Assembly: GCA_951812755.1 (NCBI GenBank)
Contig: OX638329.1
Location: 4,410,522 to 4,474,521 of the forward strand
Length of the DNA: 64,000 nt
Direction of reading: 5' to 3'
Origin: an uncultured Latescibacterota bacterium
GTDB lineage: Bacteria; Latescibacterota; UBA2968
The notes under the pieces were generated by a model. It did no database searches. It was not told where the DNA came from and was given only the letters and a program-made list of their open reading frames with translations. Positions 38,887-49,129 of this stretch are shown one piece after another; position 1 is the first letter of the stretch, and each line of letters starts with the position of its first letter. The translations under genes were made by a program, and so were the position numbers.

Positions 38887-39078
38887 CTAAGAGACTGTTT
38901 TAAAACTCATTTTGCCCCTTCTCAGCTATGCGCTATTGCCCTGTCATTCTGAGCGGAGCGCAGCGGAGTCGAAGAATCTCTTACCAACTCAGGTGGAAAA
39001 GATGCTTCGGCTACGCTCAGCATGACAAAACGCCTGACATGCATAACATCAGGTATTAATTTTAAAACAGCTTCTAAA
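38887..39078. mobile_element. MITE-like element with terminal inverted repeats
   Basis: CTGTTTTAAAA at 38895-38905 is matched by its reverse complement at 39060-39070; adjoining bases are similar, giving about 18-base imperfect ends around 192 bases. Inside are the TGTCATTCTGAGC repeat and a TGTCATGCTGAGC-type repeat in the opposite orientation. There is no coding capacity. It lies between the DUF5069 operon and the nucleotidyltransferase operon, at the edge of the accessory island. Confidence 0.6.
38938..38974 (+). repeat. 37-base inverted repeat, right copy
   Basis: Identical to the reverse complement of 36915-36951. Together the copies bracket the DUF5069-Smr-sirtuin operon. Confidence 0.85.
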
Positions 39079-39115
39079 AGTTGCTGAAGGTGTGGTTTGG
39101 CGTTGAGCATTGTCT

Positions 39116-39406
39116 TCATAACACTATCATTTCTTTTAGAACAGCGTCGCGAATTTCCTCACGGAGCGACTTTTTTGGGACGACATCTACCTTGCGATGA
39201 AGCTTTGTCTCCAGAAAATCTCCGACCCTGACCAGATCAAATAGACTTGCTTCATCGTCAAAATCTATCAAGACATCTATATCACTGGTATTTCGCTGTT
39301 CATCTCGCGCAAAAGAGCCAAATAAGCCAATTTCTCGCACTTTGTGTTGCAAAAGATCGGATTTTAATGCCTTTAGCGTGTTCACTATTTCTGTTTTGTC
39401 CATCAT
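39116..39406 (-). CDS. MNT-type minimal nucleotidyltransferase
   Basis: The ATG at 39406 overlaps the upstream stop (ATGA) and gives 96 residues. GLFGSFARDEQRNTSDIDVL is the GSFARG...SDIDL nucleotidyltransferase signature. VDVVPKKSLREEIRDAVLKE forms the C-terminal helix. In MNT-HEPN systems such an enzyme AMPylates and neutralises a HEPN RNase. No HEPN gene is adjacent; instead DUF4160 and DUF2442 precede it. Confidence 0.85.
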   Translation of the reverse strand: MMDKTEIVNTLKALKSDLLQHKVREIGLFGSFARDEQRNTSDIDVLIDFDDEASLFDLVRVGDFLETKLHRKVDVVPKKSLREEIRDAVLKEMIVL

Positions 39407-39663
39407 TCCAATGGAGCTATTTTGCCGGGATTCTCTAAATCTTGTGCCCGTTCCCAAGCTGTTCTCAATTCCGCTTGATGCAAAGACGCCCAGCGAAGCA
39501 CAAGTCGTTGTTCTCTTGTCGGCAAAAATCCTTTTAATACTTCAAGAGTTTCAATTCCAATAACTGCCTGGTTATCACCATACAGTGCGTGAAAATGCGC
39601 TGGCGGATGTTCTCTAAAATGAATTTGGATGATAATTCCGTAAAAGCGACAAAGTTCAGGCAT
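39403..39663 (-). CDS. DUF4160 protein
   Basis: The ATG at 39663 (a TTG lies at 39669) overlaps the DUF2442 stop by eight bases and gives 86 residues. FYGIIIQIHFREHPPAHFHA followed by LYGDNQAVIGIETLEVLKG is the DUF4160 pattern. DUF4160 and DUF2442 commonly form a two-gene pair thought to be a toxin-antitoxin-like unit. The His-rich PPAHFH could be functional. The activity is unknown. Confidence 0.82.
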   Translation of the reverse strand: MPELCRFYGIIIQIHFREHPPAHFHALYGDNQAVIGIETLEVLKGFLPTREQRLVLRWASLHQAELRTAWERAQDLENPGKIAPLE

Positions 39664-39940
39664 TCTCAATCGCCATTTGTGCGCCCGGCATCACTTCCGC
39701 CACAGACTTACCTGTGAGTTCCATATAAAGCGCGTCCGGACAAATATCCAAATCATCGCCCCAGGCTATTGCGCCCCCATCTGCCACGCGCACAGTCTCA
39801 AAGAATGTGCGGTCATTCCAGGCTGCAAACACACCGCGTCCAGCCATATCTGATAAGTCTATCTCACCCTCGATTCCGTCCGAATAGCGAACCCAGATGC
39901 AGTAACCATCACGCGGTTCCACTGCTATTGGTCGTATCAT
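39656..39940 (-). CDS. DUF2442 protein
   Basis: A 94-residue protein with a strong AAGGAG site. MIRPIAVEPRDGYCIWVRYS, GEIDLSDMAGRGVFAAW and GDDLDICPDALYMELTG match DUF2442. It is the first gene of the operon continuing with DUF4160 and MNT. A promoter-like repeat lies just upstream (39976-40024). Confidence 0.82.
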   Translation of the reverse strand: MIRPIAVEPRDGYCIWVRYSDGIEGEIDLSDMAGRGVFAAWNDRTFFETVRVADGGAIAWGDDLDICPDALYMELTGKSVAEVMPGAQMAIENA

Positions 39941-39974
39941 TGCAGTTCTCCTTTTGCTACAGTCTCAATTATCT

Positions 39975-40073
39975 TCACAAACAAAAAGTGTAGCAACAAC
40001 GCCATTTTGTCAACCGCATTTCAATTTGACCAGCGTATAACCACACCGCAACATGGGTATCAAAGTAGATCAA
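39975..40073 (-). pseudogene. Truncated PIN-domain toxin remnant
   Basis: Beginning with a TTG at 40073 inside the antitoxin's last codons, the minus strand encodes IYFDTHVAVWLYAGQIE, the standard start of a PIN toxin paired with Phd antitoxins. It then runs into the 49-base repeat, reads an unrelated tail (MRLTKWRCCYTFCL) and stops at 39975. Only the first 17 or so residues of a toxin of about 125 are left. The break coincides with the repeat boundary near 40024. Confidence 0.75.
39976..40024 (-). promoter_or_regulatory. Promoter-bearing repeat, copy A
   Basis: On the minus strand the 49-base unit includes GGTTGACAAAATGG and TACACT fifteen bases after TTGACA, facing the DUF2442 operon. It is identical to 45484-45532. 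It also forms the point where the PIN toxin is cut. Confidence 0.6.
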
Positions 40074-40296
40074 TATTCACCGCTTTATCCCAGTTTATAT
40101 GAACCAGATCCTCGGGATCGCCTTTAATCACATGCTTCCTTTTACACAAGTTCTGAAGTTTGTCTATACTCTCGATCGGTGCGATAATGAGTTTTCGATC
40201 TCCTTTATTGATTTTGACGGGCACACCCGTATTCAAGATATCATCCAATATCTGGTAGATATTCCCCCGCAATTCGGTCGGCGTAATTGTTTTCAT
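40060..40296 (-). CDS. Phd/YefM-family antitoxin
   Basis: A 78-residue protein. MKTITPTELRGNIYQILDDI and NTGVPVKINKGDRKLIIAPI are typical of Phd/YefM antitoxins, which bind DNA through the N-terminus and the toxin through the C-terminus. The toxin gene that should follow is reduced to a fragment (39975-40073), so this is a solitary antitoxin. It may survive as a regulator or anti-toxin of related modules. Confidence 0.85.
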   Translation of the reverse strand: MKTITPTELRGNIYQILDDILNTGVPVKINKGDRKLIIAPIESIDKLQNLCKRKHVIKGDPEDLVHINWDKAVNIDLL

Positions 40297-40355
40297 GTCA
40301 CACTCCTGGGCAAATAGACCATTTCACGACAGGCTGTGAAAGCAAAAGTAAATAA

Positions 40356-40392
40356 AAAAGCGTACGTCTCAATATTTATTACGTACGCTTTT
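40356..40392 (-). terminator. Intrinsic terminator with conserved loop, copy 1
   Basis: Twelve-base perfect arms (AAAAGCGTACGT/ACGTACGCTTTT) flank a 13-base loop. On the minus strand a T-rich tail follows, so it likely ends the RES transcript. The arms and TCAATATTTA loop recur at 46911-46944. Confidence 0.8.
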
Positions 40393-40419
40393 GCCCTATT
40401 GTTCGGTTGCCCCGTATTT

Positions 40420-40446
40420 CAAAACATCTCTCTTGCTTGCCAATCC
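40420..40446 (-). repeat. Promoter-type repeat, degenerate copy D
   Basis: GAGATGTTTTGAAATACGG on the minus strand matches the left half of copies A-C, but the TTGACA part has diverged to GGCAACCG. It lies just downstream of the RES gene. Confidence 0.5.
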
Positions 40447-40502
40447 CCCCTTTGTCAGAATCAGGATGGGCAGGATTTGAGGATATACAGGATACCCACC
40501 GC

Positions 40503-41951
40503 TCAAACACTTTGTTTCTTGACGATACGGTGTCGGGAAACTTCGCGGGAGCGATAGTCATATCGGACAGACTGGATGTCCAATACAAAGATGCTTTTCA
40601 TATCTATTTGTAGGGTTGGTTCAATGTATATGGGCAATTCCCCGCCTTCATTATCATCCTCATCCCATCTGGGTAGGGACAGGTAGGCATTCACAAAAGT
40701 TGTATCGTCATTATAAAGCGACTTTGCAGGAGTCGGAGGTACGGTCTCAAACACTCCGATATAGCTGTCATCATCTTCGTTATAGTTGCTATGGGAGATA
40801 TAAACTTCCACTTCTGCCCCTTTGGGTAAGTCGTCGGGGTCCACGCTACAAGCGTGGTTGAACAGCACCACATTGTGGCCATCGTCGGTCTGCGATGAGC
40901 GGAAGATGATTCCGTCCAACGGCGTATCCAGCTTGTTGGCCAAATATTCGGCCACGACTTGGGAAGGCAGATATTCGAACGCTTCGTCCTGGGGCATTAC
41001 TGGTCGGCAGATCTCGTGCGCCAGTGATCGGAGGGACGCCACACGGCCTCCGAGTTTGTAGTAATCAGGATCGAAGTGACTGGCGTCAATGTTCCAGATT
41101 TCCATTAATGCCTCAAGGTCCAACAGTCTCACGGGACGCAGTAGTTCAAATTTGGCTACTACCACTTGACTACCTACCGGGGCGCGAAGTTCAGCTATAC
41201 AGGTGTCTTCCTCCATTGCGCCGTAAAAGACTGGAATCCCCAACGCATTCATCCGCCCGCCCTTGGCAAGATGCGGAGGAGGAGGACCAATCTCGCGGGC
41301 AGGTGATTTCAAGATGGCTTCAAGCTCTTTGCGCGACTGTGCCGTGCGGCCCCGCCAGATATAGCCGCTTTCGCTGTCTGGACTGATTTCGTGGATCACT
41401 GATTTGCCATGGAATGACTTATGCATGCCTAAATCGCCAAAGATGTACGTCAATGCCTCTTCAGCATACGTGTTGAAGAACCGACCATGGGAGCGTATTT
41501 GGTCGCAGAATGTCTTCCAAGCACAGTCCTCCATCTCTCGCTCTTCGTAGTAGGCATCGATATCATAAGGATTTTCCTCGCCATCTTTGATGGCCCGATA
41601 GCCGTAGCGATCCGACAGTAGCTTGATCACATCGGTGACAATATCTTCGCTTAACTCTGTGATGTCGGTAATAACATCCGTCACCGGATAACCGGATCGT
41701 TCCCACCATGATAAGCCCTCTCTGACTAACATGTATTCGAAATCAATGGCTTGGTTAGGGGTAAGTTTAAAATGATCTTGTAGAACTTCGTGGATGCGTT
41801 GAGCCAGATCACCCAGTGGTAATGCCTCACCAACTGCATTACAATAGCTACATGCAACGCGAGTGCCTTCCTCACGCACAACTTTGGCCAAAAACGGATC
41901 GCTGACGCAATCATGACAGACGTAGTTCATGTCTATATCCTCTGTTGTCAT
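40503..41951 (-). CDS. RES-domain toxin with zinc-ribbon N-terminal extension
   Basis: A 482-residue protein. The N-terminus has two CxxC pairs (Cys12/15 and Cys34/37), then a helical HEPN/RES-NTD1-like region. From about residue 205 it shows the RES domain: PPPPHLAKGGRMNALGIPVF, EDTCIAELRAPVG and a later DGIIFRSSQTDDGHNVVLFN. RES toxins degrade NAD+ like ADP-ribosyltransferases. Typical RES toxins are about 150-180 residues and pair with Xre antitoxins; none is adjacent. The long N-terminus may sense or restrain the toxin. Confidence 0.82.
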   Translation of the reverse strand: MTTEDIDMNYVCHDCVSDPFLAKVVREEGTRVACSYCNAVGEALPLGDLAQRIHEVLQDHFKLTPNQAIDFEYMLVREGLSWWERSGYPVTDVITDITELSEDIVTDVIKLLSDRYGYRAIKDGEENPYDIDAYYEEREMEDCAWKTFCDQIRSHGRFFNTYAEEALTYIFGDLGMHKSFHGKSVIHEISPDSESGYIWRGRTAQSRKELEAILKSPAREIGPPPPHLAKGGRMNALGIPVFYGAMEEDTCIAELRAPVGSQVVVAKFELLRPVRLLDLEALMEIWNIDASHFDPDYYKLGGRVASLRSLAHEICRPVMPQDEAFEYLPSQVVAEYLANKLDTPLDGIIFRSSQTDDGHNVVLFNHACSVDPDDLPKGAEVEVYISHSNYNEDDDSYIGVFETVPPTPAKSLYNDDTTFVNAYLSLPRWDEDDNEGGELPIYIEPTLQIDMKSIFVLDIQSVRYDYRSREVSRHRIVKKQSV

Positions 41952-42153
41952 CCGATATCTCCTATGCCAATACTGTAAACAATTTTAGATTCTGCTAATC
42001 ACGTAGAAACACAAAATCGAAGTTGGGTGTTTCTTTCCAAATCCATATATTTTGTGCATCTTCGCTTTGATATTCTCGCCTATCTTAGAGGTCTTTTCTT
42101 CAGCTTTCACATTACCCTCGAGGTTGCGAATCGGTAATTTTTTTGGTATAAAT

Positions 42154-42187
42154 ATAGTAAGAGCATATAACTATATGCTCTTACTAT
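42154..42187. repeat. 34-base palindrome
   Basis: Perfect 16-base arms (ATAGTAAGAGCATATA and its complement) surround a two-base spacer. It lies 17 bases beyond the end of the 58-residue ORF. It has no T run on either side, so it is more like an operator, cruciform or recombination site than a terminator. Confidence 0.85.
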
Positions 42188-42203
42188 TGCGAGAGTGACA
42201 TGA

Positions 42204-42380
42204 TTATTTACGACGTTTCGGGCTGCTGCTCCCAAGATCGCTTTGTCGGTTTTCCGCATCTCTCTGGCGTTGGACTATCTCCGTGGCTTCATCCTTTGCT
42301 GCTTCCCACGCATAGTCTCCATCACCATGATCAGATCGGTAATCGTCATAGAGCTCTTCTGCAAGTTTGAATATGTCCAT
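42204..42380 (-). CDS. Small acidic protein, 58 residues
   Basis: An ORF with an ideal AAGGAG site seven to eight bases before the ATG. It begins MDIFKLAEELYDDYRSDHGD and continues with DYAWEAAKDEATEIVQRQRD. The first half is acidic and helical, the end basic (SPKRRK). No family is recognised. It is the last of several tiny ORFs on this strand and lies between a strong hairpin and a 34-base palindrome. Confidence 0.6.
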   Translation of the reverse strand: MDIFKLAEELYDDYRSDHGDGDYAWEAAKDEATEIVQRQRDAENRQSDLGSSSPKRRK

Positions 42381-42465
42381 GATCGGTCTCCTTGCAAATC
42401 ATCCGACAGGATGGTCTTGGCTATATACGATACGTGCCTGTATTAGCTCCGTGGCTTCAGGCCGC

Positions 42466-42486
42466 TTATCGTATAATGGCTATCAT
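42466..42486 (-). other. Six-codon ORF with strong ribosome site
   Basis: AAAGGAGGT precedes ATG-ATA-GCC-ATT-ATA-CGA-TAA (MIAIIR). In the +1 frame the reading continues KRPEATELIQARIVYSQDHP to a TGA at 42399-42401, resembling DEATEIVQRQRD of the next ORF. It may be a leader peptide, a frameshifted gene or a decayed copy. Confidence 0.35.
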
Positions 42487-42509
42487 GTTTACTACCTCCT
42501 TTCGGGTTC

Positions 42510-42541
42510 GCCCAATGCTGGGGCGTATCCCAGCATTGGGC
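42510..42541. other. Strong hairpin before a ribosome site
   Basis: Thirteen perfect base pairs (GCCCAATGCTGGG/CCCAGCATTGGGC) with a six-base loop. On the minus strand it lies about 10 bases upstream of AAAGGAGGT. There is no T run. It could stabilise the message or control translation of what follows. Confidence 0.8.
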
Positions 42542-42604
42542 ACGAAAATAAAAGCCCCGTGAATAACAAATACTTGTCCGCTAAGGCTCATCACAAAAAA
42601 GCCA

Positions 42605-42727
42605 TTAAGCAGTACTCCACCTGCGTTCTGCCCAGTTGCTAGCATATACAGTCGCCACTGTGACGACAACGGCTTGCAGAGCCGGTTTAATCCATTCCCG
42701 CCAAATCGATTTTAGCCATTCCCGCAT
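42605..42727 (-). CDS. Trp-rich membrane microprotein, 40 residues
   Basis: Preceded by AAAGGAGGTGAG, one of the best ribosome sites in the window. It reads MREWLKSIWREWIKPALQAV followed by a hydrophobic VVTVATVYASNWAERRW. It has a Trp/Arg amphipathic start, one probable membrane helix and a basic tail. This resembles membrane-active peptides such as type I toxins or small holins, but no family is recognised. Confidence 0.6.
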   Translation of the reverse strand: MREWLKSIWREWIKPALQAVVVTVATVYASNWAERRWSTA

Positions 42728-42755
42728 TTCGCTCACCTCCTTTCCTTTATCGAGT

Positions 42756-42905
42756 TTACTTCTTACTTCCCCAATCCTTCCGCAGACTACCCAACTTTTT
42801 ATCTGATCGGGCGTTCCGCCCAGACGGATTTGTCAGGCTGTTGCCTATGCCCAACTTTCTCTCCACCGTTTTTACTCTTGCGTCACTCCGGATCCTCCGA
42901 GCCAT
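42756..42905 (-). CDS. Small basic protein, 49 residues
   Basis: The ATG at 42905 follows AAGGGGGTGAG; the frame opens at 43037 but the leader there is the promoter region. It starts MARRIRSDARVKTVERKLGI and ends LRKDWGSKK. It is strongly basic, as in nucleic-acid- or membrane-binding peptides. It is the first gene after a promoter-like region shared with the XRE regulator upstream. Confidence 0.55.
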   Translation of the reverse strand: MARRIRSDARVKTVERKLGIGNSLTNPSGRNARSDKKLGSLRKDWGSKK

Positions 42906-42949
42906 TCTCTCACCCCCTTTCTTCAAAGAGATTTTGCAAATCTTGCTAA

Positions 42950-42977
42950 AACATATCCAAAATTTGATGCTTGTCAA
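42950..42977 (-). promoter_or_regulatory. Promoter of the microprotein cluster
   Basis: On the minus strand: TTGACA (42977-42972), 16 bases, TATGTT (42955-42950). ATGTCC lies just before the -35. The same arrangement stands before the XRE regulator (44544-44572). Confidence 0.65.
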
Positions 42978-43020
42978 TCGGACATTTAAGAGTATTTTGG
43001 GGTTTTTAGGTGTAAAAAAA

Positions 43021-43101
43021 CAGACAAATTCAGACATTAGATTTAGCGTAACCCCCGGGATTCTGTGGGGTATGGTTCCTGAATGCGCGAAAAAATAAGT
43101 C
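43021..43101. repeat. Duplicated control region, copy L
   Basis: This segment aligns, imperfectly, with 44690-44767. It has a GACAAAT..GACATTA pair ten bases apart, then TTCTGTGG.GTA and AAAAAATAAG.CGC. The two copies bracket the XRE regulator gene and lie upstream of both transcription starts. Confidence 0.6.
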
Positions 43102-43178
43102 GCTCAGACTATCCTTTCTCTTACCACATTGGTCTGTTTGTTAAGACTCATCACCGTGCTTCATCGCATCAGACCCCT

Positions 43179-44480
43179 TCAACCTTTTTTTCTTGCTTTC
43201 TCCCAGTCTTTCCACCAATTCTCATAAACCCATTTTTCCCTTTCCACCTTATCCAAAACATCGCACCTCGGATCTTCCATTAATTCCTGCAATTTGTCGG
43301 GCGGCAATTTTTCTTTGAGCCACTTCTCGCGCTCCTCACCAGCATCTTCAGCCCAGAGCACATCTGGTATCTCCGAGAGCCGAGCATGACCGAATTCAAG
43401 AGCTATCTGTGCCACCAGAGAATTATTAGCAGCCTGCCCGTATAAATCGTGCAGTCCTCCCCAAAATTTCTCTTTGAGCCACTTCTCACGCTCCTCACCA
43501 GCATCATTCTCAGCCCGGAGCCGGAGCGCATCCGGTATCTCCGAGAGCCGAGCATGACCGAATTCAAGAGCCATCCGCGCCACCGGCGAATTATTCGCGA
43601 CCTCATTGAGGACTTTAGGATAAACATCGTAATTAGGGAACCTTGACCACAGATCGCCATCTCCCACACTCACAACATCAGCGTTTTCGCGCGCTAACAT
43701 TTTCAAATATTGCGCAAAAGGACTGGCTGACCGTAAAAACTCCTCTCTCCATTCATCAGATAATAAAAAATCCTCTATTTCATCTATTTCATCCTGTGAC
43801 GGCATTTGCTCTGCCAACTGTCCATCGCCAACCATATGGCTCGCAGTCATAACTAACGCTGGCCCACCATCCCTCACTAAAATCATTAGCTCACGAAAAT
43901 AAGCGAATAAGCCCTTCCCAAATATATCCTCCTCGCTGATAGACTTACCTTCCATCTTTGCCATATTTTCTTGTGGCAGCGTAATCCCGGCAAACATGTT
44001 CCATTCATTATCACCATCACCTTTCAGGCACTTGATTGCCTCCTTCACCCCCTTCAGTTTTTCTTTTCGCCACGCGAGACTGCCCGAAGCCAAAAGTGCA
44101 AAAAACAGCGGGGCTATACTGATGAGATTAGTCGCAGTGACGTCATATTGCTCCCGGATTAAATCATAAGCCAGCCGGGTCTTTGGCCCGATCTGTGCAT
44201 TGATCCGTACGTGTCCGGAATCATCGGTAAACAGGTCCTCGACATCCGGCAAAGGTAACTCACCTGTCAAAACACCAGCTTCGACGTCCAGAGCCTTCGC
44301 TAGACATTCTACTGTATGTTCACGGGCCGTTTGGTTCGGCGAGGACTGTCTCTCTAACCGTTGGATTGTCTTTTCCGTTATTCCCGGCGGATTTACAACC
44401 CCGGTCTTTTCCGCCAGCTTAGCAATGGATAGATTTTGCTTTTTACGCAGAGATCGGAGGCGATCAGGATTAATGCGCAT
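43179..44480 (-). CDS. XRE-family regulator with duplicated C-terminal repeat
   Basis: A 433-residue protein. The N-terminus is a Cro/C1-type helix-turn-helix: LRSLRKKQNLSIAKLAEKTG with ITEKTIQRLER. Residues 130-290 form a domain of unknown type with a hydrophobic segment (NLISIAPLFFALLASGSL). Residues about 300-410 hold two copies of NNS-x-VA-xx-ALEFGHARLSEIPD ... DAGEEREKWLKEK. Their DNA is nearly identical with a 159-base period, a recent duplication. It may control itself and the downstream microprotein cluster. Confidence 0.75.
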   Translation of the reverse strand: MRINPDRLRSLRKKQNLSIAKLAEKTGVVNPPGITEKTIQRLERQSSPNQTAREHTVECLAKALDVEAGVLTGELPLPDVEDLFTDDSGHVRINAQIGPKTRLAYDLIREQYDVTATNLISIAPLFFALLASGSLAWRKEKLKGVKEAIKCLKGDGDNEWNMFAGITLPQENMAKMEGKSISEEDIFGKGLFAYFRELMILVRDGGPALVMTASHMVGDGQLAEQMPSQDEIDEIEDFLLSDEWREEFLRSASPFAQYLKMLARENADVVSVGDGDLWSRFPNYDVYPKVLNEVANNSPVARMALEFGHARLSEIPDALRLRAENDAGEEREKWLKEKFWGGLHDLYGQAANNSLVAQIALEFGHARLSEIPDVLWAEDAGEEREKWLKEKLPPDKLQELMEDPRCDVLDKVEREKWVYENWWKDWEKARKKG

Positions 44481-44543
44481 ATTTTAACTCCTCTCTTCGA
44501 GAGAAACAGCCAGTAATAAGCAATTTTTCACATTGGTGACAAA

Positions 44544-44572
44544 AAGATACCCCAAAAAATGATTCTTATCAA
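44544..44572 (-). promoter_or_regulatory. Promoter of the XRE regulator
   Basis: On the minus strand: TTGATA (44572-44567), 17 bases, TATCTT (44549-44544), with ATGTCC just upstream. The leader to the ATG at 44480 would be near 57 bases. Confidence 0.6.
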
Positions 44573-44689
44573 GGGACATGTTAAGATATTTTTGAATGTC
44601 TATATGTAAGAAAATGGGATATAAGTAAAACAAATGTTTATATTACGTCCTCAAAATAATTTTCGATACTTCATTGACGTGCGCTAAAA

Positions 44690-44767
44690 TGGACAAATGT
44701 GGACATTATATTCATCGTAGTCCCTGGCCTTCTGTGGCGTAGATTTCAACGTACAAAAAAATAAGCC
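44690..44767. repeat. Duplicated control region, copy R
   Basis: GGACAAATGTGGACAT shows two GGACA boxes ten bases apart, one DNA turn. The rest aligns with 43021-43101. Confidence 0.6.
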
Positions 44768-44839
44768 GCCCATCCGACATTCGGAGAGCAGCACAGTTGC
44801 ATTAAAACGCCCTTAGTATGATAGAAATTTAAAAGCTTC

Positions 44840-45208
44840 TCATATTGGCAAAATCCGCACTCGAGTCCTGATCTCATCTACAACAACCAGAGACCCAGAA
44901 GCCAGATCAGCATCGTGCTGTCTGAGAGCAGCGATTACGATATTCTCCAGATGATCCGGCAATATATCTTTAGCGCGAACCTGAAGCACACTTGGACCAA
45001 TCGCGTGGGACAGAGCCAGCAGGGTGCCAAAATCCAGATCGTGGGTAAACACGACATATTCATGCCTCACCGCCCAATCCATAATTATCCGGTCACTTTC
45101 CTGCGGGTCACCTATTGTGGACCAATGGACTGCCGACCATCCGTGGCTCTTCAGCACAGGCACCCAATCGGGCGACAGATTCATGTCCACCAAAAGCTTC
45201 ACACTCAT
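44840..45208 (-). CDS. DUF5615 PIN-like toxin
   Basis: The ATG at 45208 overlaps the DUF433 stop (ATGA) and gives 122 residues. KLLVDMNLSPDWVPVLKSHG, then FTHDLDFGTLLALS, carry the acidic residues of the PIN-like Mut7-C/DUF5615 fold. It is the presumed RNase toxin of the DUF433-DUF5615 pair, a common toxin-antitoxin arrangement. Confidence 0.85.
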   Translation of the reverse strand: MSVKLLVDMNLSPDWVPVLKSHGWSAVHWSTIGDPQESDRIIMDWAVRHEYVVFTHDLDFGTLLALSHAIGPSVLQVRAKDILPDHLENIVIAALRQHDADLASGSLVVVDEIRTRVRILPI

Positions 45209-45435
45209 AGGGTGACCAGTGCAACTTCCCGTTCTTCGACCCGCCACGCGGCATAAGCCAGAGCTTGATCGATATCTTCCCTTTCCAGATAAGGATAGGC
45301 TTTCAGAATTTCCTCATGTGATCGTCCGGCTGCCAAAAGTCCCACAACAGTTCCAACCGTCACCCGTAGTCCTCGAACACATGCCTTGCCGCCCATAACT
45401 GCGGGATCGAAAGTAATCCGTGTCAATTTTTCCAC
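45205..45435 (-). CDS. DUF433 antitoxin
   Basis: A 76-residue protein from a GTG with GGGAGA upstream. ITFDPAVMGGKACVRGLRVT and LEREDIDQALAYAAW match DUF433, a winged-helix antitoxin. It is coupled to DUF5615 downstream. The promoter-bearing repeat copy B lies 49 bases upstream. Confidence 0.87.
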   Translation of the reverse strand: MEKLTRITFDPAVMGGKACVRGLRVTVGTVVGLLAAGRSHEEILKAYPYLEREDIDQALAYAAWRVEEREVALVTL

Positions 45436-45483
45436 GCGCTATCTCCCATCATATCCGTATTATCGGGTATAAAAACGATTCTC

Positions 45484-45532
45484 CACAAACAAAAAGTGTA
45501 GCAACAACGCCATTTTGTCAACCGCATTTCAA
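45484..45532 (-). promoter_or_regulatory. Promoter-bearing repeat, copy B
   Basis: Identical over 49 bases to copy A (39976-40024) in the same orientation. TTGACA and TACACT face the DUF433-DUF5615 operon. Similarity with copy C extends to 45540. Confidence 0.65.
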
Positions 45533-45554
45533 AATATATCATGGCAGGTTGGAC

Positions 45555-45583
45555 TTGATTCATACGTCATTTTGACGTATAAT
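45555..45583 (+). promoter_or_regulatory. higBA promoter with operator palindrome
   Basis: TTGATT, 17 bases, TATAAT. The perfect palindrome ATACGTCA-TTT-TGACGTAT (45562-45580) fills the spacer and overlaps the -10, as expected of an autorepressor site. The toxin ATG is only 7 bases after the -10, so the message would be leaderless. Confidence 0.75.
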
Positions 45584-45589
45584 TTAAAA

Positions 45590-45871
45590 ATGGAAAGAGT
45601 CCTATTTGATAGGGTCAGAAAAAATCTGAATCGGTTGCCCATTCATATTGTAAGAAACCTTCAGCGCTGGGCACTTCAAGTAGAATCTCTGGGTATTCGG
45701 GAAGTTAGAAAAATCCCCGGATATCATGATGAACCTCTTCGAGGTGACCGAACCGGGCAAAGATCCATCAGGCTATCCAGATCCTATCGCGCCTTCTATA
45801 CTGAAATAGAAGATGAAGGTGATGAGGTTAATTTGATTCAAGTTGAGGAGATCAATAAACATGACTATTAA
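45590..45871 (+). CDS. HigB/RelE-type toxin
   Basis: Starting at 45590 gives 93 residues; the frame to 45515 lies in the promoter. RNLQRWALQVESLGIREVRK, GYHDEPLRGDR and SIRLSRSYRAFYTE are typical of HigB RNases that cleave mRNA on the ribosome. No ribosome site is present, in line with a leaderless start. The antitoxin gene overlaps its end by 11 bases; toxin-first order is the hig signature. Confidence 0.85.
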   Translation: MERVLFDRVRKNLNRLPIHIVRNLQRWALQVESLGIREVRKIPGYHDEPLRGDRTGQRSIRLSRSYRAFYTEIEDEGDEVNLIQVEEINKHDY

Positions 45872-46163
45872 AGAACAATATGGGACTTCTGAACTGGAGA
45901 GAGACTTTGGATGTCTCACATTCGGAAATGCCCTATCCAGCTATCGCACAGGAGAAGAAAAGAGCCAGAGAGCGTTTGCTGATTTGTTGGGCATTTCTCC
46001 TCAAAGCCTTTGTGATATAGAAAAAGAAAGAAGAATTCCAAGCCCCAGCAGAGCAGCCAAAATTGCCAGGCAACTCGGCGAGCCAGAAAGCTTCTGGGTT
46101 CAGCTTGCACTACAAGATATGCTTCAAAAAGAAAACTTGAACCTCGTTGTTTCCATCGATTGA
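45861..46163 (+). CDS. HigA-type XRE antitoxin
   Basis: The ATG at 45861 gives 100 residues. FGNALSSYRTGEEKSQRAFA, DLLGISPQSLCDIEKERRIP and ARQLGEPESFWVQLALQDML form a helix-turn-helix antitoxin. It would bind HigB and the ATACGTCA palindrome upstream of the operon. The proposed operator link is inference. Confidence 0.87.
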   Translation: MTIKEQYGTSELERDFGCLTFGNALSSYRTGEEKSQRAFADLLGISPQSLCDIEKERRIPSPSRAAKIARQLGEPESFWVQLALQDMLQKENLNLVVSID

Positions 46164-46197
46164 TCTATTGCGTATGCGATAGCAATACGCAGAAAAA

Positions 46198-46236
46198 GCC
46201 CGGTTCCTTTCCGGAATCGGGCCATTTTTATTTTTT
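46198..46236. terminator. Bidirectional terminator
   Basis: GCCCGGTTCC pairs with GGAATCGGGC (one G-U) around TTTCC, followed by a T-rich tract, with an A run before. It ends higA on the plus strand and the methyltransferase on the minus strand. Confidence 0.85.
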
Positions 46237-46852
46237 AGGACAGCTTAACGACAATGAGATGCGACTTTTGCAGGGGCAGGATACACGTCAGATAATCGGG
46301 CACCTCATCCAAGCGGCTCTTAAAAGCTGCCCAGTCCGGATCCATGTACCATTGTTCGACCGCAGACCAGCCATCGACAAAAATGAAAGCCCCTGGTGCC
46401 AGGCGGCTTTCCAACATGTCGAACATCTGTGCGAAAGCGTGCAGGCCAAAGTCAACAAAGACGAAATCCACGCGATCGGGAAGGGCCGCGATAAAGGCAT
46501 CACCGGTACTCGTATGGCATTCCACCAGATGATCCAGACCCGCGGCTCGCAAATTTCCCTGAGCCGCCGCAGTTTTCTCAGGCATCTGATCCAGGGTAAA
46601 AACGCGACCTCCCGTGTGCTGTGCTGCCGCGGCCAGATGCAAAGTGGAATAGCCGTGCGAAGTGCCAAATTCAACCAGCGTCCTCGCCTGTTGATGAACC
46701 GCGGTGAGACACAGATAATGAGCCACCTCTGGACTGGCGGCCTTGAGGCGTAGCGGGTCTGTAGAGCACGCGCGGCGCTCCTGCTGGTCACAGCTATGCA
46801 GGTGGGCGACAAGCACTCGTTGAGCCGGGGTAAAGAGATCTTCGATATGCAC
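46235..46852 (-). CDS. SAM-dependent O-methyltransferase-like protein
   Basis: A 205-residue class I methyltransferase. The SAM site is LVEFGTSHGYSTLHLAAAAQ, with FTLDQMPEKTAAAQGNL and DFVFVDFGLHAF following. It resembles the family-3 O-methyltransferases that act on catechol-type substrates. The substrate is unknown. It stands alone among toxin-antitoxin genes. Confidence 0.8.
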   Translation of the reverse strand: MHIEDLFTPAQRVLVAHLHSCDQQERRACSTDPLRLKAASPEVAHYLCLTAVHQQARTLVEFGTSHGYSTLHLAAAAQHTGGRVFTLDQMPEKTAAAQGNLRAAGLDHLVECHTSTGDAFIAALPDRVDFVFVDFGLHAFAQMFDMLESRLAPGAFIFVDGWSAVEQWYMDPDWAAFKSRLDEVPDYLTCILPLQKSHLIVVKLS

Positions 46853-46910
46853 AGAGAATCCTTTCGCGGGCGAGGTACAAATCCGCTCCTGCGAGCGGCA
46901 AAAAATAAGA

Positions 46911-46944
46911 AAGCGTACGTATCAATATTTAACACGTACGCCTT
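46911..46944 (-). terminator. Intrinsic terminator with conserved loop, copy 2
   Basis: GCGTACGT/ACGTACGC arms and a 13-base loop with TCAATATTTA repeat those of 40356-40392. A T-rich tail follows on the minus strand. It likely ends the AbrB-PIN transcript. Confidence 0.7.
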
Positions 46945-47010
46945 CGTAATAACGATTAAAAAACGCGAGTGATTAGAGCCGGATGCCTCAGTTTCACAAT
47001 GAAGATAAAA

Positions 47011-47427
47011 TCAGGGCTCGACTCTTTTGACATGTTCAACGCGGTCAAATTCCTTATCAAAGGTATATAATTCACTTGAGCCAGCACGTTTCATTTGTGT
47101 GGCAATATAGGCATCTGTAAAACTGATATTCTTTTCAGCATAAAGAGAAAGTGCTTCAAGAAAGATATTTTTATCCGATATTTTGAGACTTTTGAGTTTG
47201 AGAATGGACGACACTTTGGAGGCGACATTGCTTTTCGAAAGTTTGTAGAACCGTTCTAATGTCCATACAATTTCGGCAGCCGCCAGAATTGACAATTCTA
47301 CTGTTTCTCGACCACTTTGAATGCGCTGCATAAGCATTGAGGCTTTATCGGCCTGTTCAGGTAGATCGTTGGTAAGAAAGCGAAGTAAGATATTTGTATC
47401 GACAAATCTATGACTTGAGGGCGACAT
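47011..47427 (-). CDS. PIN-domain toxin (VapC)
   Basis: The ATG at 47427 lies 20 bases inside the antitoxin gene and gives 138 residues. FVDTNILLRFLTNDLPEQAD, EIVWTLERFY and FTDAYIATQM with YTFDKEFDRV give the four acidic PIN positions. It is the toxin partner of the AbrB-type antitoxin upstream. A long frame to 47562 is only overlap. Confidence 0.87.
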   Translation of the reverse strand: MSPSSHRFVDTNILLRFLTNDLPEQADKASMLMQRIQSGRETVELSILAAAEIVWTLERFYKLSKSNVASKVSSILKLKSLKISDKNIFLEALSLYAEKNISFTDAYIATQMKRAGSSELYTFDKEFDRVEHVKRVEP

Positions 47428-47653
47428 GTTCGGCGACCCTCTTTTCAACTTCAATTTCAATCGCATCGAAGTCCTGCGGGCCATCAACCGGAACGCTGCC
47501 TCTAAGTGCCATAACATCATCTTCAACCGGAATGAGTTCCGCGCGGCCATTTTTGACGACAACAGAGACGATGGAACCTTTATCCAGATTGAGTTGGTTT
47601 CTCACTTCACGGGGAATTGTGATTCGTCCTTTTGATGTCACACGTACATACAT
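47408..47653 (-). CDS. AbrB-type (SpoVT) antitoxin
   Basis: An 81-residue protein with MYVRVTSKGRITIPREVRNQ and LNLDKGSIVSVVVKNGRAEL, the swapped-hairpin AbrB DNA-binding fold. The C-terminal half (DFDAIEIEVEKRVAEHVA) would bind the PIN toxin. An AGGAGAAC site precedes the ATG. Promoter-type repeat copy C lies 60 bases upstream. Confidence 0.88.
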   Translation of the reverse strand: MYVRVTSKGRITIPREVRNQLNLDKGSIVSVVVKNGRAELIPVEDDVMALRGSVPVDGPQDFDAIEIEVEKRVAEHVALKS

Positions 47654-47712
47654 GATCGTTCTCCTATGTTTTTAAGTTACTCTAAGAACCAAAAGATGTC
47701 GTAATGATGAGA

Positions 47713-47743
47713 TTTTGTCAACCGTATTTCAAAATATCTCTCG
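47713..47743 (-). promoter_or_regulatory. Promoter-bearing repeat, copy C
   Basis: GATATTTTGAAATACGGTTGACAAAAT on the minus strand, in two parts: the GATATTTTGAAATACGG core and TTGACAAAAT. It overlaps the last codons of the XPB gene and faces the AbrB-PIN operon. The part after TTGACAAAAT differs from A and B. Confidence 0.6.
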
Positions 47744-49129
47744 TTGCTTCCCATCGTACGCGTCGTGTTGTCTGCGGCGGCGGGAAATGCGGTCTTCAAC
47801 CGTATTGCGGGAGATCACTTCGTAGAGAATGGCGTGTTTGCCTTCGCGGCGGCGCAAAATGCGCCCCAATCGCTGGACGTGCTCGCGGATAGTGCTCGTC
47901 CCCGAAAGCACAACCGCGACATTGGCCTCGGGTACATTGACCCCTTCGTTGAGCACGCGAGAAGTGACAAGCGCGAGAATGTCCCCCTCATTAAAAGCTT
48001 TGAGAATTTCCCGGCGCTCCTTTGTGCGGGTCTGGTGCGTAATGGCGGGAATGAGAAATTGCTCTGAAATATTATAAACAGTTTCGTTGTCATTAGTAAA
48101 AATGAGCATGCGATCGCGCGGGTGTTTTTTCAACAAGTCTTCCAGCACGCGCAACTTAGCGGTCGTGCCCAGAGCGACTTTTCGATAGCGGCGATAGGCG
48201 AGCATCGCCCTTCGTCCATCGCTGGAACGAGCCGAGAGACGCACAAAATTTTGCCATCCAGAAGCACTGCCCAACCGCAGATTCTTGGACTCCAGAAAAG
48301 CACTGAATTGCGAACGCGCAGTTTCGTATTCGGCGCGCTCTTCAGCCACCATATCGACTTCAATGCGCTGCGTATTATACTCAGAGAGATAATCGCCCGA
48401 CAAATCGCGAATACCCTTTTCATAAACGGTGGGTCCCACGAGATCGCGCAGCATAAGATGGCGCCCATCGGGACGTTCGAGCGTGGCTGTAAGCCCCAGA
48501 CGATAAGGAGCAATAGAAAGTTCCGCACCGTGAGAATAGGATTCGCCGGGCAGGTGATGGACTTCGTCAAAAACCAGAAAACCAAAGCGATTGCCATAGC
48601 GATCCATGTGCATATACGCACTGTCGTAAGTCGTTACAGTAAGATCTTCAAGCTCGTGATATCCCCCACCCAGAATGCCGATATCGCATGCAAAAGCATC
48701 TTTGAGCAAGTCATACCACTGATTCATAAGATCAATCGTAGGCGCGACAACAAGAGTACTGCGGGCAACTTCTGCAATACCCATCAGCGCGAGAAGCGAC
48801 TTACCCGACCCCGTGGGCAACACAACCACGCCGCGATATTGGTTTGATTGCCAGGCGTCAAAGGCTTCAGCCTGGTGCGGATGTGGGGTGTGTTCTCGGT
48901 TGAAATCGAGTTTGAGGCGGTTGTAGCGCGGGACGACATTTTTTATTTTAACATCCTGAGCCTGTAATACCTCGACAACATCGCGATACCGATGCGCCTG
49001 AGCGCGCCAGCGTCCCACGCGGCTATCCCATATAAATGGAGATGGCGGTTCATAGTCCGCTGGCGCATCCAGAAGGACGAGCGTGCCATCGTCGAACGCA
49101 AGGCGCATGTCGGGAGATGGGGATGGCAA
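47729..49129 (-). CDS. XPB-like superfamily 2 DNA helicase
   Basis: A 466-residue helicase. An N-terminal damage-recognition-like region is followed by LPTGSGKS (104-111), VFDEVHHLPG, GLTATLERPDGRH and the C-terminal QRLGRILRRREGKHAILYEV. This is the XPB/Rad25 layout. In archaea XPB works with Bax1, whose DUF790 homologue is encoded at 35409. They would open and cut damaged DNA. Its stop region merges with repeat copy C. Confidence 0.87.
   Translation of the reverse strand: MPSPSPDMRLAFDDGTLVLLDAPADYEPPSPFIWDSRVGRWRAQAHRYRDVVEVLQAQDVKIKNVVPRYNRLKLDFNREHTPHPHQAEAFDAWQSNQYRGVVVLPTGSGKSLLALMGIAEVARSTLVVAPTIDLMNQWYDLLKDAFACDIGILGGGYHELEDLTVTTYDSAYMHMDRYGNRFGFLVFDEVHHLPGESYSHGAELSIAPYRLGLTATLERPDGRHLMLRDLVGPTVYEKGIRDLSGDYLSEYNTQRIEVDMVAEERAEYETARSQFSAFLESKNLRLGSASGWQNFVRLSARSSDGRRAMLAYRRYRKVALGTTAKLRVLEDLLKKHPRDRMLIFTNDNETVYNISEQFLIPAITHQTRTKERREILKAFNEGDILALVTSRVLNEGVNVPEANVAVVLSGTSTIREHVQRLGRILRRREGKHAILYEVISRNTVEDRISRRRRQHDAYDGKQREIF

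What the first reader, a model, noticed from the sequence alone, without database searches (positions are those of the whole stretch)
42154..44480. Cryptic microprotein cluster under a large XRE regulator
Three very short ORFs (49, 40 and 58 residues) lie in series on the minus strand, each with a strong Shine-Dalgarno site (AAGGGGGTGAG, AAAGGAGGTGAG, AAGGAG). They begin just after a TTGACA-16-TATGTT promoter and lie downstream of a 433-residue XRE protein. One is basic, one a Trp-rich single-helix membrane peptide, one acidic. No recognised family fits. The cluster also holds a 13-bp hairpin, a six-codon ORF and a 34-bp palindrome. Seeing the ORFs is direct; calling this one system, perhaps a membrane-toxin or phage-response module, is inference.
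Basis: partly seen in the sequence, partly recalled or inferred. Interest (0 to 1): 0.75.

Follow-up and report, generated by a model that had tools for sequence, protein, structure and literature searches.

The report
XRE-controlled operon of conserved microproteins
In a Latescibacterota bacterium, a DNA-binding regulator whose close relatives sit beside a toxin-like gene instead sits beside three tiny genes that carry a copy of its own control site, and one of the three belongs to a widespread family of about 48-residue proteins that none of the four profile libraries searched here covers.

Summary
ORFs A (49 aa), B (40 aa) and C (58 aa) lie in series below a 433-aa XRE gene. They are real genes: in the same genus the order XRE-A-B-C recurs in one genome and XRE-B-C in a second. 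A has 6 synonymous and 0 non-synonymous changes, B has dN/dS 0.02-0.07, C about 0.27. The XRE gene and ORF A have homologous upstream regions that share the motif AATGTCYRNRTWTGTCY. In 15 related genomes this motif occurs 10 times, 9 of them at this XRE family; its reversed control occurs 0 times. XRE, A and B are therefore most likely one regulatory unit. First, related XRE genes overlap a DUF4258-like ORF (RelE/ParE toxin superfamily); the three window-type loci lack it and have microproteins instead. Second, ORF A belongs to a cross-phylum microprotein family (74 loci in GTDB genomes, plus phages and plasmids; 6 invariant residues) with no Pfam, NCBIfam, PHROG or PADLOC match and no solved relative. 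Toxicity, phage response and what the three proteins do are not shown. Best reading: a toxin-antitoxin-type regulator rewired to repress a microprotein operon.

The parts
43179..44480 (-). XRE regulator, 433 aa; N-terminal HTH, tandem C-terminal repeat of about 70 aa
   Evidence: HTH_3 E=3e-5; orthologues G005:C376 and G003:C210, paralogues in 6 genomes
44691..44707 (-). XRE-family operator motif upstream of the XRE gene (AATGTCCACATTTGTCC)
43022..43038 (-). second copy of the operator motif, upstream of ORF A (AATGTCTGAATTTGTCT)
   Evidence: about 90 bp around it is homologous to the XRE upstream region, 72%, E=6e-12
42950..42989 (-). promoter-like TTGACA-16-TATGTT with an abutting half-site pair (AAATGTCCGATTGACA)
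   Evidence: sequence; conserved in G005
42756..42905 (-). ORF A, 49 aa basic microprotein (pI 11.8), member of the cross-phylum RSD family
   Evidence: dN 0, dS 0.20
42605..42727 (-). ORF B, 40 aa Trp-rich, weakly hydrophobic single-helix peptide (alternative GTG start at 42736, 43 aa)
   Evidence: 93-95% identical in G005 and G003; dN/dS 0.07 and 0.02
42510..42541 (-). 13-bp hairpin between B and C
   Evidence: arms kept, loop changed in G005; no T-run after it, so not a standard terminator
42204..42380 (-). ORF C, 58 aa acidic microprotein (pI 4.7)
   Evidence: 51% identical in G005, a 70-aa relative in G003 at the same place; dN/dS about 0.27 with G005

Best explanation
This is an XRE-controlled microprotein operon that evolved from a toxin-antitoxin-type module. 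The XRE protein comes from a family whose other members overlap a DUF4258 toxin-like gene (shown). In the window lineage the toxin-like gene is gone, and the XRE promoter and operator region has been duplicated in front of ORF A (shown). The XRE protein most likely binds TGTC-type sites at both promoters and represses its own gene and A-B, and perhaps C by read-through (inferred). When repression is lifted the cell makes three small proteins: A, a folded basic protein of the RSD family; B, a Trp-rich membrane-associating helix; and C, an acidic partner (properties predicted from sequence). A distant C relative in the same genome is fused to a transmembrane helix and a basic tail, which hints that C works with a membrane partner such as B (weak inference). 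What the proteins finally do is open; a stress or dormancy-type response is the most likely role (guess from the toxin-antitoxin ancestry and the contexts of A).
For: Protein-level selection on A, B and C. Order kept in G005 and, without A, in G003. Operator motif found 10 times in 15 genomes, reversed control 0; 9 of 10 lie upstream of an XRE-family gene or of ORF A, and exactly two in the window genome, both here. XRE and ORF A upstream regions are homologous; in G003 the region upstream of B also matches the window's XRE upstream region, 78%, and carries the motif with one mismatch. Seven of nine paralogues have an intact DUF4258-like ORF overlapping the XRE stop (ATGA), one has a degenerate one, one has none; the three window-type loci have none. 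The same XRE-DUF4258-like order is seen in the alphaproteobacterial plasmid relatives read. DUF4258 is listed in the RelE/ParE (BECR) toxin superfamily (PMC11980606). ORF A: confident AlphaFold model, pLDDT 90. C relative fused to a TM segment.
Against: XRE binding, repression and transcription of A-B-C as one unit are not measured. Only three loci carry the arrangement, and A is missing from one. The operator lies about 200-240 bp upstream of the XRE start, far for a simple repressor site. C has its own SD and a 220-bp gap from B. ORF A relatives elsewhere lie in unrelated contexts, so A does not need this XRE protein.
Confidence: 0.6

Rival explanations
1. A true toxin-antitoxin or abortive module: B is a membrane-active toxin that has replaced DUF4258, held in check by XRE repression and by A or C as antidote.
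For: XRE relatives sit in TA-like pairs; the neighbourhood is rich in TA genes; B is short, Trp-rich, amphipathic and strongly conserved.
Against: No toxicity data; B is only borderline as a TM helix; A relatives mostly lie in non-TA contexts; B has no relative outside three loci.
Confidence: 0.2
2. The three small genes are passengers: A is a general, mobile microprotein with its own function, and the operator copy in front of it is a by-product of a promoter duplication with little regulatory meaning.
For: A relatives occur beside dnaK/dnaJ, phoU, nrdB, phage terminase-portal and many other genes; G003 lacks A.
Against: The operator copy is kept in all three loci, with one mismatch in G003; B and C are restricted to these XRE loci apart from one C relative.
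Confidence: 0.13
3. Remnant of a phage or other mobile element: XRE is a lysogeny-type repressor and the small ORFs are early genes.
For: XRE matches PHROG regulators (HTH only); A relatives occur in phages between terminase and portal genes; G003 carries the locus with different flanks.
Against: The full XRE has no relative in the phage or viral collections searched; neighbours are TA and housekeeping-type genes; in window and G005 the surrounding flanks are orthologous at about 93%.
Confidence: 0.05
4. The ORFs are not genes; the region is a leader RNA or chance.
For: Hairpin, short ORF and palindrome in the spacer.
Against: dN/dS far below 1 for A and B; cross-phylum homologues of A; no Rfam match.
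Confidence: 0.02

Closest known systems
Type II toxin-antitoxin modules with an XRE/HTH antitoxin and a DUF4258 (RelE/ParE superfamily) toxin-like gene
   Same: The XRE family, the operator upstream of the XRE gene and the position of the cargo gene downstream
   Different: No DUF4258 here; the cargo is three microproteins with their own operator copy and promoter
Type I toxin-antitoxin peptides (small hydrophobic membrane toxins)
   Same: B is a short helix that may insert in membranes
   Different: Weak hydrophobicity; no antisense RNA found by the Rfam search; protein regulator instead
Clostridial clusters with a 170-aa XRE protein, a 40-50 aa protein, a ~50 aa DUF1232-like membrane protein and an ORF A relative (e.g. 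L107, L114, L136)
   Same: XRE gene plus several microproteins including an A relative and a membrane helix
   Different: XRE and membrane peptide not recognisably homologous to those here beyond the HTH; gene order and strand vary; only a minority of A loci

Membership tests
XRE-DUF4258 type II toxin-antitoxin module | HTH regulator of the same family | tested here: met
   46-59% identity over the N-terminal ~190 residues to paralogues paired with DUF4258
XRE-DUF4258 type II toxin-antitoxin module | adjacent or overlapping DUF4258/BECR-fold gene | tested here: not met
   none within 200 bp of the XRE stop in window, G005 and G003; A, B and C have no Pfam match above cut-off
XRE-DUF4258 type II toxin-antitoxin module | shared operator upstream of the regulator gene | tested here: met
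   (motif match, binding not shown)
XRE-DUF4258 type II toxin-antitoxin module | cargo toxic, regulator neutralises | not testable with these tools
   needs expression assays
Type I toxin-antitoxin | short hydrophobic membrane toxin | tested here: inconclusive
   B best 19-residue hydropathy 1.2
Type I toxin-antitoxin | antisense RNA antitoxin | tested here: inconclusive
   no Rfam family at gathering threshold in the window; new antisense RNAs would be missed
RSD microprotein family (defined here, consensus MxRKxRSDCTVGTFEKKxGLPPGTIRNPDGRDTRSDKKIGTIRKE) | the six invariant residues D8, E15, N26, R33, D35, K36 in a 45-55 aa frame | tested here: met
   ORF A has all six in a 61-sequence alignment
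RSD microprotein family (defined here, consensus MxRKxRSDCTVGTFEKKxGLPPGTIRNPDGRDTRSDKKIGTIRKE) | match independent of a profile that contains ORF A | tested here: met
   plain tblastn of ORF A alone: Paenibacillus plasmid E=4e-5 over all 49 residues, phage record E=3e-4

The most novel reading that the evidence does not exclude
A toxin-antitoxin regulator lineage has changed its cargo: by duplicating its own promoter-operator it took control of a microprotein operon, whose first member belongs to an undescribed, cross-phylum (possibly also archaeal) family of ~48-aa basic proteins that also occurs beside chaperone, phosphate-signalling and ribonucleotide-reductase genes and in phage packaging modules.
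Probability: 0.45. Interest if true: 0.78.

Novelty: new variant of a known kind. Interest (0 to 1): 0.6.

Why it matters
It turns a sequence-only guess into a testable unit: a defined operator, a defined regulator and three selected microproteins. It suggests that toxin-antitoxin-type regulators can be rewired to non-toxin cargo, and it brings out a microprotein family present in culturable bacteria (Exiguobacterium, Halomonas relatives, Lachnospiraceae), plasmids and phages that has no model in the profile libraries searched, so its function can be studied outside uncultured Latescibacterota.

Tried and rejected
Weak ORF B matches in relatives: those inspected (L040, L041, L042, L049) overlap a 530-aa ORF, and L050 lies among other long ORFs, so rejected; the phylum-wide B search gave only the three XRE loci as strong hits. 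Six-codon ORF and 34-bp palindrome as conserved parts: not kept in relatives. Known RNA elements: none in Rfam. XRE structure: AlphaFold with two sequences gave pLDDT 34, unusable; PDB by sequence gave nothing significant. ORF A fold: Foldseek hits are mostly ubiquitin-like but none significant (best E 0.64 in PDB, 0.35 in viral models), so no fold is claimed. ORF A as an obligate XRE partner: rejected, contexts are too varied. The tenth operator hit, in G008, lies where no XRE-family gene was found and is taken as chance. Paper searches for the peptide motifs found nothing.

Full report
Setting. The window is G000:C1:4410522-4474521 of a 6.53-Mb single-contig genome. The surroundings are rich in toxin-antitoxin-type genes.

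Are the ORFs real? A is identical in protein between window and G005, with 6 synonymous changes in 147 bases (dN 0, dS 0.20). B gives dN/dS 0.07 with G005 and 0.02 with G003, where a four-residue insertion lengthens the helix. C gives about 0.27 with G005. The XRE gene itself gives 0.37 and 0.51. So A and B are under stronger constraint than the regulator. These are short sequences, so the ratios are rough. In G003, A is absent and C is represented by a 70-aa ORF with a strong SD at the same place.

The regulator. XRE orthologues occur in G005 and G003; more distant relatives occur in G004, G005, G006, G015, G016 and G017. In seven of nine of those paralogue loci the XRE stop overlaps the start of a ~100-aa ORF; of three such proteins tested, two match DUF4258 above its cut-off (E=2e-8 and 5e-8) and one is recognised only by its similarity to them. 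One further locus has a broken copy and one has none. Relatives at about 27% identity on alphaproteobacterial plasmids also have a similar ORF directly downstream, recognised by eye in four loci and not by Pfam in the two tested. A 2025 survey lists DUF4258 within the RelE/ParE superfamily, activity unknown (PMC11980606). The window-type loci have no such ORF.

The operator. A motif AATGTCYRNRTWTGTCY lies about 205-240 bp upstream of most family XRE genes. In 15 genomes it occurs 10 times against 0 for the reversed pattern; nine are at XRE-family loci, of which two are upstream of ORF A (window and G005). The 90 bp containing it upstream of the XRE gene and upstream of ORF A are homologous (E=6e-12). 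G003 carries AACGTCTGCGTTTGTCC upstream of B, and that region matches the window's XRE upstream region. Binding is inferred, not shown.

ORF A family. tblastn of ORF A alone finds relatives on Paenibacillus and Spirosoma plasmids and in a phage record. A pattern scan of GTDB genomes gives 74 loci in Bacillota, Pseudomonadota, Chloroflexota, Bacteroidota, Acidobacteriota, Spirochaetota, an archaeal MAG and Latescibacterota/Gemmatimonadota-labelled MAGs; IMG/VR gives seven more. Many records are MAGs, so some assignments may be contamination. Sixty-one members share D8, E15, N26, R33, D35 and K36. No significant match was found in Pfam, NCBIfam or PHROGs with ORF A and three further members, nor in PADLOC with ORF A, and none in the PDB. 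Contexts include DnaK-A-DnaJ, PhoU-A, NrdB-A, terminase-A-portal and clostridial XRE clusters. Twelve of 84 loci have a 171-aa-type XRE gene within 3.5 kb; no background rate was computed for this.

ORFs B and C. B is confined to the three XRE loci. C is confined to them except for a 128-aa relative at G000:964568, in which the C-like part is followed by a transmembrane segment and a basic tail. This is the only, weak, hint that B and C act together.

Location. Window and G005 share orthologous flanks at about 93% identity; the G003 locus has no flank match to this window, so the unit may move.

Mechanism and limits. The most economical reading is a toxin-antitoxin-type regulator whose promoter-operator was duplicated in front of a microprotein operon, so that XRE autorepression and repression of A-B are coupled. 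Shown: conservation, order, operator duplication, absence of DUF4258 where relatives have it. Inferred: binding, repression, co-transcription with C, membrane role of B. Unknown: the biological output.

Noticed in passing
43179-44480 (residues about 294-391): The XRE C-terminal part is a tandem repeat of about 70 aa whose copy number differs: about two in window and G005, three in G003, one in paralogues.
   Followed up: partly
about 43180-43195: Relative to G005 and G003 the window XRE gene has a one-base difference near its 3' end that changes the frame, so the protein ends earlier (KKG instead of KKRLEESDAM...).
   Followed up: no
38900-47700: Dense cluster of toxin-antitoxin-type genes: HEPN/RES (40503-41951), Phd-like (40060-40296), DUF433/DUF5615 (45205-45435, 44840-45247), and by eye an MNT-like ORF, a HigBA-like pair and a VapC/AbrB-like pair.
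   Followed up: no
39975-40073, 45423-45563, 47677-47799: Short dispersed repeat giving similar peptides (LTKWRCCYTFCL...); copies also match elsewhere in the G005 contig.
   Followed up: no
L107, L114, L136, L071-L073: Clostridial clusters with a 170-aa XRE gene, 40-50 aa proteins, a DUF1232-like membrane peptide and an ORF A relative: a possible parallel architecture with different parts.
   Followed up: partly
L148-L152: ORF A relatives lie between terminase large subunit and portal genes in IMG/VR contigs (both Pfam-confirmed in L149, portal in L151).
   Followed up: partly
L065 (G000:C1:964568-964765): Distant ORF C relative fused to a transmembrane segment, with SD AAGGAG, downstream of a 227-aa ORF without Pfam match.
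   Followed up: partly
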